41,645 nt of DNA, from positions 1 through 41,645 of the forward strand of contig JAFWTC010000053.1 of assembly GCA_017519045.1 (NCBI GenBank), given 5' to 3'. A program made the position numbers and the translations under genes. The stretch is from Candidatus Methanomethylophilaceae archaeon. GTDB taxonomy: Archaea; Thermoplasmatota; Thermoplasmata; Methanomassiliicoccales; Methanomethylophilaceae. The notes under the pieces were generated by a model. That model saw nothing but the letters and a program-made list of their open reading frames with translations, was not told the origin of the DNA and did not search any database. Of the stretch, positions 2,600 through 16,117 are shown piece after piece (position 1 is the first letter of the stretch; each line of letters opens with the position of its first letter).

Positions 2600-3457
2600 T
2601 CACGAGTGCTTCAGGGATCCGTAGGCCACCACGTGCGGGAGCCCGTCACGGTCGTGGATCACTTCTGCGTTGACCTTGTAGACGTTCCTCAGCATTTCTT
2701 CCGTGAAGATGTTCTGGGAGGGCCCTTTGGCATACACCCTCCCTTCCTGGAGCACGACCACCTCGTCCGCGAAGCGGGATGCCAGGTTCAGGTCATGCAG
2801 GATCATCACGGTCACGAGTCCGCGCTGTTCCGACAGGTCTCTTACGACCTCGAACATCTCCAGCTGTTTCTGCAGGTCGAGATTGTTCGTGGGCTCGTCC
2901 ATCAGCAGGAGCTGCGGTTCCTTCACCAGCGCCTGGGCGATGGAGATCATCTGCAGCTGCCCCCCGGACAGCTCGTTGATCTGCTTGTCCGCAATCTTGT
3001 CGACGGTCTCCTCGCTCACCATCCCGTAGGTGTAGCACCACATGGGTATGAACACCGCGTCGGGCTCCATCGAGGCCACCGTCTCCCAGTTGAAGTTGTT
3101 GTCCTGGAAGCTTCCCACGGACTTGGCCTTCTTGAAGTCCATTCCTGCGGCCTCCCACATCCTCTTCACATCCGGGTAGTAGGAGTCGAGGTTGGCGTCG
3201 TAGCCTACGATGACGTCCTTGACCTGGGTCCCGGCGATCGCGGCTATCAGCTCCATGGCTTCCGCGTCTCCGAACACCACCCTCTCCAGGGGGACCTGGA
3301 GCTTCACCTGGCGGCCGGCCAGGTCCGTGATGCTGATCGTCTCCTTCTCCGCAGGACGGTCGCTGCTGCCTCCGTTGTTGTTGGTGACGATGACGACGGC
3401 CGCCGCTATGATCAGAACCGCTGCGACGACGGCGATTATCGCTATCTTCTTGTCCAT
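2600..3457 (-). CDS. Chimera: ABC binding-protein N-half fused to ABC ATPase C-half (Fe/B12 type)
   Basis: This 285-residue open frame joins pieces of two proteins. Residues 1-30 are a membrane-anchor or signal segment, and residues about 40-157 look like the N-terminal lobe of a periplasmic iron-siderophore/cobalamin binding protein (PF01497 type; ITDLAGRQVKL, ASMEPDAVFIP). From about residue 159 it becomes the C-terminal half of the partner ATPase (FecE/BtuD type): signature INELSGGQ, Walker B LLLMDEPTNNLD, H-loop ILHDLN. The ATPase Walker A, the second binding-protein lobe and the whole permease are missing. The probable junction is at IADKQIN (about 2976-2992), a stretch that could resemble both parents. 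The likeliest origin is a deletion of roughly 2 kb inside a binding protein-permease-ATPase operon that left the frame open. It is unlikely to work as a transporter. An assembly collapse is the alternative. Confidence 0.8.
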   Translation of the reverse strand: MDKKIAIIAVVAAVLIIAAAVVIVTNNNGGSSDRPAEKETISITDLAGRQVKLQVPLERVVFGDAEAMELIAAIAGTQVKDVIVGYDANLDSYYPDVKRMWEAAGMDFKKAKSVGSFQDNNFNWETVASMEPDAVFIPMWCYTYGMVSEETVDKIADKQINELSGGQLQMISIAQALVKEPQLLLMDEPTNNLDLQKQLEMFEVVRDLSEQRGLVTVMILHDLNLASRFADEVVVLQEGRVYAKGPSQNIFTEEMLRNVYKVNAEVIHDRDGLPHVVAYGSLKHS

Positions 3458-5387: not shown

Positions 5388-6440
5388 ATGTCCATAAAGA
5401 ACAGGAAGGCCGACCATATCGAGATCTGCAAGAACGAGAGGACCGCCCCCGGTTATTGCTACTGGGACGACGTGAGGCTCGTCCACAACGCGCTTCCGGA
5501 GATAGACGCAGACGACATCGACATGTCCTGCGAGCTGTTCGGGAAGAAGCTCAGCTTCCCTCTCATCGTCACGGCGATAACCGGCGGGTTCGACGGCGCC
5601 GTCAAGATCAATTCCAACATCGCCAGCGCCTGCGCCGACCTAGGGATAGGGATGGGCGTCGGAAGCGAGAGGGCGGGCGTGTCCGGGGTGCACCCGGAGA
5701 GCTACTCCGTCATAAAGGACTTCGACGTCCCGCTGGTGATAGGCAACGTCGGCGCTCCCCAGCTGGTGAGGCAGAAGGGAGGCGTCGCATTCGACAGGGA
5801 CACTGTCGCCAAGGCGATCGAGCTCGTGGACGCCGACGTCATGGCGGTCCATCTGAACTTCCTGCAGGAGGTCGTGCAGCCCGAGGGCGACACCAACGCG
5901 GCCGGATGCAGGGACGCCATCCGCGGCCTGGCCAGGGAGTTCCCGGTCATGGTCAAGGAGACCGGCGCGGGGATATCCAAGGACGTCGCGACGAGGCTGA
6001 AGGGCATCGGGATCAAGGGCATAGACGTCGCGGGCATGGGCGGGACGAGCTTCTCCGCCGTGGAGCTGCACCGCGCCGTGGCGGTGGACGACGAGGTCAG
6101 GTCCGCTATGGGCGAGACCTTCCTGGACTGGGGGATACCCGCTCCCGTCTCGCTGATGGAGGCCAGGGTCAGCGGGCTTCCGCTCATCGCGTCGGGCGGG
6201 ATCCTGGACGGGATCCACGTCGCGGCCGCCGTCGCGCTGGGGGCTTCTTGCGCAGGAGTGGCGAACGCGGTCCTCAGGGAGGCCTGCGAGTCCGCGGACG
6301 CGGTCAAGAGGAAATTGACGATTATCATGGAGGAGCTGAGGGCGGCCATGCTGCTCACAGGCTCCAAAGACATCGACAGTCTCTCCAAGGCGAGGCACGT
6401 GGTCCTCGGCGAGAGCAGGAAATGGATGGAGTCGCTATGA
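5388..6440 (+). CDS. fni: Type 2 isopentenyl-diphosphate delta-isomerase
   Basis: This FMN- and NADPH-dependent enzyme interconverts isopentenyl and dimethylallyl diphosphate and so supplies both substrates to the prenyltransferase encoded next. Family marks are ADHIEICKNE at the N-terminus, the FMN-site segment GVGSERAG, the metal and substrate motif HLNFLQEVVQPEGD, and the glycine-rich phosphate loop IASGGILDGIHVA. Its 350 residues match archaeal members. It follows ipk by one base and overlaps the polyprenyl synthase gene by four bases (ATGA), so the three are co-translated. Confidence 0.96.
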   Translation: MSIKNRKADHIEICKNERTAPGYCYWDDVRLVHNALPEIDADDIDMSCELFGKKLSFPLIVTAITGGFDGAVKINSNIASACADLGIGMGVGSERAGVSGVHPESYSVIKDFDVPLVIGNVGAPQLVRQKGGVAFDRDTVAKAIELVDADVMAVHLNFLQEVVQPEGDTNAAGCRDAIRGLAREFPVMVKETGAGISKDVATRLKGIGIKGIDVAGMGGTSFSAVELHRAVAVDDEVRSAMGETFLDWGIPAPVSLMEARVSGLPLIASGGILDGIHVAAAVALGASCAGVANAVLREACESADAVKRKLTIIMEELRAAMLLTGSKDIDSLSKARHVVLGESRKWMESL

Positions 6441-7423
6441 TGGATGCTAAGAGTTATCTCAAGAAGAAGTCCGCCGAGCTGGACGGGCCTATAAAGGAAT
6501 ACATACAGGACGACGAGCCGCCGAACCTCATCGAGGCCTCCAGGCAGTACCCCTACGCCGGAGGGAAGAGGATGCGCCCGGCGATGGTCCTGGCCTGCTG
6601 CGGCGCCGTGGGCGGGAACCCGAAGGACGCGGTCCCGCTGGCGGTGGCGATCGAGTACATCCACAACTTCACGCTGATACACGACGACCTCATGGACGGG
6701 GACGAGGTCCGCAGGGGGATGAAGACCATCCACGTCGGATACGGTATGCCTACTGCGGTCCTGGCCGGCGACTGGCTGTTCTCCAGGGCCTGCGAGATCA
6801 TCAGCAACATGGACATCCCTCCGGAGAAGACCGTCAAGGTCCTGAAGTACGTGACCAAGGCGGTATGCGACCTCGGGCGCGGCCAGCAGATGGACGTGAA
6901 CAACGAGGGCAGGATAGTGTCTGAAGACTACTACATAGAGACGATAAAGCTCAAGACCAGCGTCCTGTTCGCCGCGGCAGCCGCCGGAGGGGCCATAGTC
7001 GGAGGGGCGGACGACGCCACCGCCTAGGCGATCTACGACTACGCCATCGACCTTGGGCTCGGGTTCCAGATGTTCGACGACTACCTCGGAGTGGCCGGAG
7101 ACCCCTCCAAGACCGGAAAGTCGGTCGGGAACGACATACGCAAGGGCAAGTGCACCTGCATGGTCACCCACGCCATAAGGTCGATAAAGGACCCGTCCAC
7201 GCTGGAGGAGTTCAGGGGCATCCTCGGGAAGGCCGACGCCACCGACGCCCAGTGCGCCAGGGCCAAGGAGATACTCGAGAAGGCCGGATCCATCGATTAC
7301 GCGATGTCCCTGGCCAAGAGCAAGGCCGAGTCGGCCATCGCCAGGATAGGGTTCCTGCCGGAGAGCGAGGACAAGGAGTTCATGATCGGCCTCGCCAGGT
7401 TCTCCATAGACAGGGAGTCCTGA
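6437..7423 (+). CDS. Geranylgeranyl diphosphate synthase with in-frame UAG (Pyl?) codon
   Basis: This all-trans polyprenyl diphosphate synthase probably makes geranylgeranyl diphosphate for archaeal lipids. The first aspartate-rich motif HDDLMDGDEVRRG lies near residue 82 and the second, FQMFDDYLG, near residue 214; the substrate-binding KTGKSVGNDIRKGK follows. A TAG codon at 7025-7027 (codon 197) interrupts the frame between the two motifs. Both sides belong to one domain, the frame is unchanged across it, and the protein ends at a TGA after 328 codons, the usual family length. Each half alone lacks one catalytic motif. The simplest reading is UAG decoded as pyrrolysine in a variable helix. 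A nonsense mutation or sequence error is the alternative. The start ATG overlaps the fni stop. Confidence 0.9.
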
Positions 7424-14438: not shown

Positions 14439-14732
14439 ATGGTCTACGATGCGGACGTCGCTATAACGCTCTGGCCCGAATACTTCGACGCGAAGCGCAC
14501 CAGGGCCGAGGGAAGGAGGCTTCCCAAGTCGCTCTGCGTCGATAATCCCAGCCTGGACATCATCGCCAAGGCCGCGATGATCCTCGACCTGGAGTACGAG
14601 GTCCTCGACTCCAAGTGCTACCCGAAGGCGCCCCGCGCCGGCCATGGATGCGTCAAGGTGGAGAAGGGGAAGATCTGCAAGACGGCGCTTCTGCGCAAGG
14701 TCGGCGAGACGCTGGTCAAGAACAAGAAGTGA
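14439..14732 (+). CDS. srp19: Signal recognition particle protein SRP19
   Basis: SRP19 binds 7S RNA and prepares it for SRP54, so it is needed to target membrane and secreted proteins. The 97-residue protein starts with the typical TLWPEYFDAKRTRAEGRRLP and has a basic C-terminus (LLRKVGETLVKNKK). The size is normal for archaea. Its stop overlaps the nnr start (TGATG), so the two are co-translated. Confidence 0.95.
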   Translation: MVYDADVAITLWPEYFDAKRTRAEGRRLPKSLCVDNPSLDIIAKAAMILDLEYEVLDSKCYPKAPRAGHGCVKVEKGKICKTALLRKVGETLVKNKK

Positions 14733-16117
14733 TGGTCTTGATCACCCCGACGGACTCACGTGTCCTGGACGCCAACTCCGCCGCGCTGGGGGTTCCCGTG
14801 GCCGCCCTCATGGAGGCCGCAGGGAGGGCCCTGGCCGATTTTCTGGAAAAGGAGCGTCCCGGCTCCAAGGCGTTATTCGTCTGCGGGACCGGGAACAACG
14901 GAGGGGACGGATTCGCCGCTGCGGTCAGGAGGGATCCCTCCCGCACGAAGGTGGCCCTTCTGAAGAAGCCTTCCGCCATCCGCACAGACGAGGCCCGCTA
15001 GTGCTATTCTGTCCTGGAGTGCCCCGTGGAGGCGTACGCCGGGCCAGAATCGCTCGAAGGATACGACGTCATAGTCGATTGCGCCCTCGGCACCGGGGCA
15101 TCCGGAGATGTGAGAGAGCCCTACCTGGGCTTCATATAGGATGTGAACGCGTCCGATGCCTTCGTGGTGTCAGCGGACGTGCCTTCCGGGTTCGGGACCT
15201 CCGTTCGCGTCAAGCCGGACGCCACTGTCACGTTCCATGACCTCAAGCAGGGGATGGACGAGAGTTGCGGGAGGATAGTCGTGGCGGACATCGGGATCCC
15301 GGAGGACGCCTGGAGGAAGGTCGGCCCCGGGGACATGCTGCGCTATCCCGTTCCCAGGCCTTCCAGCCACAAGGGCGACAACGGGAAGCTGATGATCGTC
15401 GGAGGGGGGCCGTACTTCGGGGCTCCAGCCATGTCCGCCATGAGCGCCCTGCGCATCGGGACCGACAGCGTGCGCGTGTTCACGCCGGAGTCATCCTACA
15501 GGGAGGTCGCGGCCGCATCGCCCGTCCTCATGGCCACCAGGCTTCCGGGAGACCGTCTGGACGGCGGAAGCGTGGACATGCTTCTGAGGGAGTCGGCATC
15601 GTACGGGGCGGTCCTCATCGGCCCGGGGCTCGGAGCCTCCCAAGACACGCTGGAGGCCGCCGCCAGGTTCATGCGCGAATGCAGGGTCCCGATGGTCATA
15701 GACGCCGACGCCATATCCGCCGCCAAGGGCATGAAGGTGGCCGTCCCCACGGTCCTCACGCCCCATGCAGGCGAGTTCGCGAGGATCTCGGATGGAAGGA
15801 GCCCAGAGGAGGTCGCCTCGGCAATGGGCGCCGTGGTGCTTCTGAAAGGCAAGGACGACGTTGTCACCGACGGTTCCAGGACTCGCATCAATTCTTCGGG
15901 GACTCCGGCGATGACCGGCGCCGGAACCGGGGACGTCCTGGCAGGCGCCGTCGCCGGCCTTCTGTCCAAGGGCATGGACGCCTTCGATGCGGCCTGCCTC
16001 GCCGCGTACGTCTGCGGGAAGGCGGGGGAGGAGGCGTTCGAGTCCAAGTCCTACGGCCTCATAGCCACGGACGTCATAGACGGGATCCCGACGGTGCTCC
16101 GGAACGGGTTGAGATGA
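14732..16117 (+). CDS. nnr: Bifunctional NAD(P)HX epimerase/dehydratase with two in-frame UAG (Pyl?) codons
   Basis: Nnr repairs hydrated NADH and NADPH: the N-terminal domain epimerises NAD(P)HX and the C-terminal domain dehydrates it with ADP or ATP. The epimerase half shows CGTGNNGGDGFAAAV, DCALGTGASGDV and SADVPSGFG. The dehydratase half shows GDNGKLMIVGGGP, LIGPGLG, LTPHAGEFARI and PAMTGAGTGDVLAG. Two TAG codons interrupt the epimerase domain: 14999-15001 (codon 90) and 15137-15139 (codon 136). The frame is unchanged through both and conserved motifs flank each one, giving a normal total of 461 residues. The codons fall in variable positions between motifs. Pyrrolysine insertion is the simplest explanation. 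Otherwise the epimerase half is a pseudogene and only the dehydratase (from about 15143) is made. Confidence 0.9.

What the first reader, a model, noticed from the sequence alone, without database searches (positions are those of the whole stretch)
14999..15139. Two in-frame UAG codons in nnr, both inside the epimerase domain
TAG codons at 90 and 136 interrupt the NAD(P)HX epimerase half while every conserved motif before, between and after them stays in frame (NNGGDGF, ALGTGASG, DVPSG). Both are UAG; none is UGA or UAA. Two pyrrolysines 46 residues apart in a metabolite-repair enzyme would be striking. Alternatively the organism makes a short N-terminal fragment plus a dehydratase started near 15143, so UAG could act as a partial switch that depends on the pyrrolysine supply.
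Basis: partly seen in the sequence, partly recalled or inferred. Interest (0 to 1): 0.82.

Follow-up and report, generated by a model that had tools for sequence, protein, structure and literature searches.

The report
Pyrrolysine-encoding UAGs in a repair enzyme
A methane-making archaeon of a gut lineage carries two UAG 'stop' codons inside an intact NAD(P)HX repair enzyme, and the evidence says the cell reads them as the rare amino acid pyrrolysine, as it seems to do in many other ordinary genes.

Summary
In detail: nnr (14732-16117, +) has TAG at 14999-15001 and 15137-15139, both in the epimerase half, and no other in-frame stop. The genome encodes the whole pyrrolysine system: tRNA-Pyl(CUA), PylS, PylB, PylC, PylD, and mtmB and mtbB with in-frame TAG. 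In 36% of the genome TAG ended 7 of 357 coding stretches but lay inside coding sequence at 22-25 places. The sister species (86% identical, water-buffalo rumen) has the same TAG at codon 90 and GAC at 136. In 28 other same-genus nnr genes codon 90 is Glu, Gln, His, Phe or Asp. Codons 91-205 are under strong purifying selection between the two TAG-bearing species (dN/dS 0.09), with no acceleration seen after UAG136. So both UAGs are most likely sense codons for pyrrolysine at tolerant helix positions. The 'switch' idea finds no support. This is a new member of a known kind, as predicted for 'Ca. M. alvus' in 2014. Side lead: the release factor's NIKS motif reads NIRS in this genome and one relative, against NIKS in 45 of 47.

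The parts
14732..16117 (+). nnr: bifunctional NAD(P)HX epimerase / NAD(P)HX dehydratase, read through two UAG codons; likely true start TTG 14738
   Evidence: YjeF_N plus Carb_kinase; TIGR00197 128.9 bits (cut-off 88.6), TIGR00196 217.9 bits (cut-off 129.85)
14801..15253 (+). epimerase domain (YjeF_N), spanning both UAGs
   Evidence: E 1.8e-28, profile positions 2-169 of 169, 2 TAG inside
14999..15001 (+). UAG codon 90 (88 from TTG 14738), shared with the sister species G001
   Evidence: TAG in L002 and L003; GAG/GAA in the five next-closest species
15137..15139 (+). UAG codon 136 (134 from TTG 14738), only in this genome among those compared
   Evidence: GAC in the sister, very variable column in the genus
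15392..16090 (+). dehydratase domain (Carb_kinase), residues 221-453
   Evidence: E 2e-47
14727..14733 (+). Shine-Dalgarno-like AAGTGAT upstream of TTG 14738
   Evidence: by eye in 30 same-genus genes
6437..7423 (+). polyprenyl synthetase gene with one in-frame TAG at 7025-7027: a second UAG-bearing gene in the window
   Evidence: PF00348 spans it; the orthologous codon is Glu, Lys, Arg or Gln in 17 same-genus relatives

Best explanation
Both UAG codons of nnr are sense codons decoded by tRNA-Pyl(CUA), so the gene makes one full-length Nnr with two pyrrolysines at tolerant positions, in helix 86-93 and helix 131-140. The genome belongs to a Methanomethylophilaceae-type, probably gut-dwelling lineage with methylamine methyltransferases, in which pyrrolysine is probably made all the time (inference), and UAG is hardly used as a terminator. 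A point mutation that makes UAG in a tolerant codon therefore behaves as a missense change to Pyl and can persist. UAG90 arose once, most simply by GAG to TAG (Glu to Pyl), before this species split from its sister. UAG136 is younger or was lost in the sister. Shown here: the codons, the complete pyl machinery, the use of UAG in a 36% sample of the genome, the shared ancestry of UAG90, and selection after it. Inferred: actual incorporation of Pyl, its efficiency, and a neutral rather than a functional role.
For: Pyl machinery: tRNA-Pyl with CUA anticodon; PylS_Cterm 258.3, PylB 426.5, PylC 306.6, PylD 200.5 bits, all above NCBIfam cut-offs; mtmB and mtbB with in-frame TAG. The sister has 2.9 kb of the same operon at 86% DNA identity, covering most of pylB, pylC and pylD. 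UAG as sense: in 688,706 bases (36.1%; 2,947 of them N) TAG was terminal 7 times against TGA 321 and TAA 29, and internal 22 times plus 3 unclear; of 12 TAG sites in the first sample, 8 (in 7 genes) lie inside a single Pfam domain, one of them an archaeal UMP kinase (TIGR02076). Shared origin: L002+L003 have 100/99 support and the five next relatives have GAG/GAA. Selection: codons 91-205 dN 0.093, dS 1.057, ratio 0.088, between the ratio of codons 1-89 (0.049) and that of the dehydratase (0.124); binomial chance under neutrality 7e-14. After UAG136: 1 change on the G000 branch, 2 on the G001 branch. Fold intact: pLDDT 94.2 with Lys in place of Pyl; best PDB match 2ax3, TM0922 Nnr, E 8.8e-38.
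Against: No protein or RNA data. The genome is an assembly in 86 contigs, 91% complete; UAG136 rests on this one assembly. 7 of 357 terminal stops are TAG (12 of 381 with looser limits), so UAG may still terminate sometimes. No TAG in the nnr match of the 55 other genomes with one, so Pyl is not required for Nnr function. pylS and tRNA-Pyl of the sister lie outside the matched stretch, and no PylS over cut-off was found in that 61%-complete assembly. Codons 137-205 have the highest ratio of the segments, 0.178 (0 to 0.155 in four TAG-free pairs). Relative-rate counts are small; codons 3-89, before any UAG, show 4 changes on the G000 branch against 0 (p 0.125). The whole-length TM-score to TM0922 is only 0.56 with rmsd 17, so the two domains seem to lie differently.
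Confidence: 0.9

Rival explanations
1. UAG as a partial switch: with little pyrrolysine the cell makes a short N-terminal fragment and a dehydratase restarted downstream; with enough pyrrolysine it makes full Nnr.
For: Competition between release factor and tRNA-Pyl is possible in principle; several in-frame GTG/ATG codons follow the UAGs.
Against: GTG 15143 has no Shine-Dalgarno-like match of 4 or more bases in its upstream window. The best matches among candidate starts in residues 85-235 are 5 bases: GTG 184 in G000 (none in the sister) and ATG 221 in the sister (none in G000). Residue 138 is Val only in the two TAG-bearing species and one other of 30. UAG is mainly sense in the sampled genome. 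The RNA after the two UAGs is not unusually folded (z -0.61 and -1.44). Only 2 of 57 genomes with nnr have any UAG in it.
Confidence: 0.04
2. The epimerase half is decaying: the UAGs are nonsense mutations in a pseudogene-like domain and only the dehydratase is used.
For: Two in-frame stops in one domain; NAD(P)HX can also epimerise without enzyme (recalled); ratio 0.178 in codons 137-205.
Against: dN/dS 0.09 after the shared UAG90 at dS about 1; the epimerase residues that are invariant in 46 sequences are kept; no acceleration after UAG136; no TAA or TGA.
Confidence: 0.02
3. Sequencing or assembly error.
For: Assembly of many contigs; UAG136 is seen in one genome only.
Against: UAG90 is present in a separate assembly of a sister species with nearly saturated synonymous sites. 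Internal TAGs recur in the sampled genome, 8 of the first 12 inside one protein domain.
Confidence: 0.02
4. A variant of the best explanation: Pyl at residue 90 is selected, because it gives Nnr a property (charge, regulation, stability).
For: UAG90 was kept although synonymous sites are nearly saturated; at an unconstrained codon retention would be unlikely (inference).
Against: 42 of 65 columns of similar variability are also unchanged between the two species, so retention is ordinary. The site is variable elsewhere and lies outside the invariant motifs.
Confidence: 0.05

Closest known systems
Pyl-containing proteins predicted in 'Candidatus Methanomethylophilus alvus' (Borrel et al. 2014, PMC4153887; passages read)
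   Same: A Methanomassiliicoccales archaeon with a complete pyl system; TAG rare as terminator (1.6% there); in-frame TAG in non-methyltransferase genes, half of which have homologues without it (16 there, e.g. Cas1, MtxX).
   Different: The passages seen do not name nnr; the table was not read in full. Here one TAG is shared by two species and tested for selection, and there are more sites: 22-25 in 36% of the genome, methyltransferases included.
Archaeal code with TAG read as pyrrolysine throughout (report of 2025 by Kivenson and colleagues; recalled only, nothing of it seen; searches did not find it)
   Same: TAG as a general sense codon in archaea, with proteomic proof as I recall it.
   Different: Not checked here. 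This window would be one more example.
MtmB / MtbB / MttB methylamine methyltransferases
   Same: In-frame UAG decoded by the same machinery; MtmB and MtbB genes in the same genome.
   Different: There Pyl is catalytic and conserved across homologues (recalled); in Nnr it is lineage-specific and outside the conserved motifs.
TM0922 (2ax3), bifunctional Nnr of Thermotoga maritima
   Same: Same two-domain enzyme; best sequence and fold match.
   Different: About 31% identity; whole-length TM-score 0.56, so the domains seem to be placed differently in the model.

Membership tests
UAG-as-pyrrolysine gene in a Pyl-decoding archaeon | genome encodes tRNA-Pyl(CUA), PylS and PylBCD | tested here: met
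UAG-as-pyrrolysine gene in a Pyl-decoding archaeon | one conserved protein domain spans the UAG in frame | tested here: met
   YjeF_N spans both
UAG-as-pyrrolysine gene in a Pyl-decoding archaeon | coding constraint continues after the UAG | tested here: met
UAG-as-pyrrolysine gene in a Pyl-decoding archaeon | UAG rare as terminator, frequent as internal codon | tested here: met
   36% of the genome: 7 of 357 terminal stops; 22 internal plus 3 unclear
UAG-as-pyrrolysine gene in a Pyl-decoding archaeon | pyrrolysine found in the protein | not testable with these tools
   needs mass spectrometry
Bifunctional Nnr | YjeF_N epimerase and Carb_kinase dehydratase domains with conserved motifs | tested here: met
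Bifunctional Nnr | epimerase and dehydratase activity | not testable with these tools
   needs enzyme assay
Catalytic-Pyl enzymes (MtmB type) | UAG conserved at one position across homologues | tested here: not met
   UAG in 2 of 57 genomes with nnr
UAG-regulated two-product switch | conserved internal start with ribosome-binding site after the UAG | tested here: not met

The most novel reading that the evidence does not exclude
In this lineage UAG is on the way to full capture as a pyrrolysine codon, helped by a weakened release factor. aRF1 reads NIRS instead of NIKS at the stop-codon-contact motif, written AGG in this genome and CGT in relative G005. Ordinary housekeeping genes (nnr, UMP kinase, polyprenyl synthetase) thereby become dependent on pyrrolysine.
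Probability: 0.13. Interest if true: 0.7.

Novelty: new member of a known kind. Interest (0 to 1): 0.42.

Why it matters
It gives an evolutionary test, not only an in-frame codon: the same UAG in two species with nearly saturated synonymous sites and strong constraint downstream. It shows a repair enzyme found in 57 of 60 genomes examined tolerating a 22nd amino acid at non-catalytic sites, and tells annotators that nnr, UMP kinase and others in such genomes are wrongly split when UAG is read as stop.

Tried and rejected
Chance argument from 'both are TAG': weak, since 55-66% of single-step new stops in this gene are TAG. Downstream RNA element: none seen; three 100-base folds have z -0.61, -1.44 and +1.23. 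Sharing of other TAGs: the polyprenyl synthetase, UMP kinase and larC TAGs were sought in 31 genomes each, this one included. For the first two, no other genome has a TAG in its best match. For larC, 16 of 31 genomes match, and G005 also has one TAG, whose position was not compared. The sister assembly (61% complete) gave no orthologue of these three (only weaker paralogue hits for the first two), so sharing could not be tested there. Correlation of NIRS with TAG use: sampled G005 (NIRS; 188,959 bases) had 0 terminal and 3 internal TAG; G017 (NIKS; 200,000) 4 terminal, 5 internal, 1 unclear; G026 (NIKS; 183,675) 3, 4 and 1. All three have internal TAGs, so no link is shown.

Results dropped: minus-strand loci not turned; redone; codon model trained on shadow frames; replaced; row L154 (wrong coordinates). 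Two partial aRF1 loci (L194, L199) lack the motif region. 2,947 of the sampled bases read N.

Considered: the seven 'terminal' TAGs. Four are followed by an in-frame TGA within 0-9 codons (L086, L088, L162, L176); one looks like a continuing protein by eye (L173); one lies in an alpha/beta hydrolase gene on a 3.2 kb contig (L085); one follows only five codons after the first start in its frame (L181).

Full report
Observation. The window is the whole contig C52 of a 1.91 Mb, 91%-complete assembly. nnr runs from 14732 (or TTG 14738) to 16117, with TAG at 14999-15001 and 15137-15139 and no other in-frame stop. Pfam's YjeF_N model matches over positions 2-169 of 169 across both TAGs, and Carb_kinase follows. 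NCBIfam gives NAD(P)H-hydrate epimerase and dehydratase above cut-off.

Machinery. The same genome holds tRNA-Pyl with CUA anticodon, followed on the same strand by pylS, pylB, pylC and pylD, all above NCBIfam cut-offs. mtmB and mtbB with their in-frame TAG lie in the same 19.9 kb stretch, not directly adjacent. The sister genome has 2.9 kb of the operon at 86% identity; pylT and pylS lie outside the matched part, and no PylS over cut-off was found in that 61%-complete assembly.

How UAG is used. With a codon-usage frame test I classed every stop triplet that follows coding sequence. In 325,517 bases (17.1%) TAG was terminal 3 times, internal 10 times and unclear twice, one of these being nnr codon 90. 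In 688,706 bases (36.1%, 2,947 of them N) the counts were: TGA 321 terminal, TAA 29, TAG 7; TAG internal 22, unclear 3. 'Internal' TGA and TAA (19) need not be read-through: the 8 in the window and the pyl locus fall at the junction of two genes in one frame; the other 11 were not examined one by one. In the first sample the 12 internal or unclear TAGs lie in 10 genes. One Pfam domain spans 8 of these sites in 7 genes: nnr (two sites), polyprenyl synthetase, MtmB, MtbB, UMP kinase, LarC and an alpha/beta hydrolase. One gene had no family (L079), in one the best-matching stretch lies elsewhere (L097), and one was not scanned (L089). The 13 further internal or unclear sites were judged by codon usage only. 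With looser limits the counts for G000 are 12 terminal, 24 internal and 1 unclear, and three sampled relatives also have internal TAGs.

Relatives. nnr was found in 57 of 60 genomes, this one included; only this one (2 TAG) and G001 (1 TAG, 86% identity) have stops inside their nnr match. G001 has TAG at the same codon 90 and GAC at 136. In the other 28 same-genus genes codon 90 is GAG/GAA, CAG, CAC, TTC or GAT, and codon 136 is very variable. The tree joins the two TAG-bearing genes with 100/99 support; the five next relatives all have Glu. One G-to-T change on their common branch explains UAG90.

Selection. Between the two species, codons 1-89, 91-205 and 206-461 have dN/dS 0.049, 0.088 and 0.124 at dS 0.8-1.1. 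Within 91-205, codons 137-205 alone give 0.178, the highest segment; four pairs of TAG-free genes give 0 to 0.155 there. Under neutrality the low share of non-synonymous change has binomial probability 7e-14 in 91-205 and 3.5e-5 in 137-205. Codons 137-205 show 1 change on this genome's branch and 2 on the sister's, so there is no sign that UAG136 released the rest of the epimerase domain; the counts are small. Of 65 columns about as variable as column 90, 42 are identical in the two species, so keeping UAG90 does not by itself show that Pyl is needed.

Structure. With Lys in place of Pyl the model has mean pLDDT 94.2. Residue 90 lies in helix 86-93 and 136 in helix 131-140. The best PDB match is TM0922 (E 8.8e-38; TM-score 0.56 over the whole length with rmsd 17, so the domains seem differently placed). 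Exposure was not computed; the variability of both columns suggests surface positions (inference).

The switch idea. GTG 15143 has no Shine-Dalgarno-like match in its upstream window, and no candidate start in residues 85-235 of either species has a match longer than 5 bases. The RNA after the UAGs is not unusually folded.

Known or new. Borrel et al. 2014 (PMC4153887, passages read) predicted 16 extra Pyl proteins in 'Ca. M. alvus' and explained them as stable mutations where suppression is efficient; this case fits that account. A 2025 report of a code with TAG as pyrrolysine throughout is recalled, not seen: searches for 'Kivenson' with pyrrolysine and archaea and for 'Pyl code' in the held library did not find it. 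A search for pyrrolysine, Nnr and epimerase together found no paper.

Side lead. The class-1 release factor of this genome has NIRS (AGG); the other 29 of 30 loci have NIKS. In a second set of relatives 16 have NIKS, G005 has NIRS with another codon (CGT), and two partial loci lack the region. So 2 of 47 have Arg. G005's factor is 96% identical over 271 residues but only 64% at third codon positions, so it is a second case and not the same sequence. In human eRF1 the NIKS lysine is the residue whose hydroxylation aids termination (PMC3991326, passages read). No link with TAG use could be shown.

Noticed in passing
L157 (G000:C4:6367-7563) and L200 (G005): Archaeal release factor aRF1 has NIRS instead of the NIKS motif, with different Arg codons (AGG, CGT); 45 of the 47 genomes with the region have NIKS.
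   Followed up: partly
window 7025-7027: In-frame TAG in the polyprenyl synthetase gene (6437-7423); the codon is Glu, Lys, Arg or Gln in the 17 same-genus relatives compared.
   Followed up: yes
window 2600-3457, - strand: ORF that looks like the start of a substrate-binding protein (by eye) fused to the second half of an ABC transporter ATPase (the 25 NCBIfam matches shown begin at residue 146 or later): deletion or misassembly.
   Followed up: partly
L081 7743-8471 (G000:C4): The archaeal UMP kinase gene, next to aRF1, carries an in-frame TAG spanned by TIGR02076.
   Followed up: partly
L089 12432-20000 and L172 near its right end: A very large surface-protein-like gene and a partial similar one each carry two TAGs in matching sequence contexts, suggesting duplication after the TAGs arose.
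   Followed up: no
G000 loci L086, L088, L162, L176: Four of the seven coding stretches that seem to end in TAG have an in-frame TGA within 0-9 codons, as if backed up.
   Followed up: no
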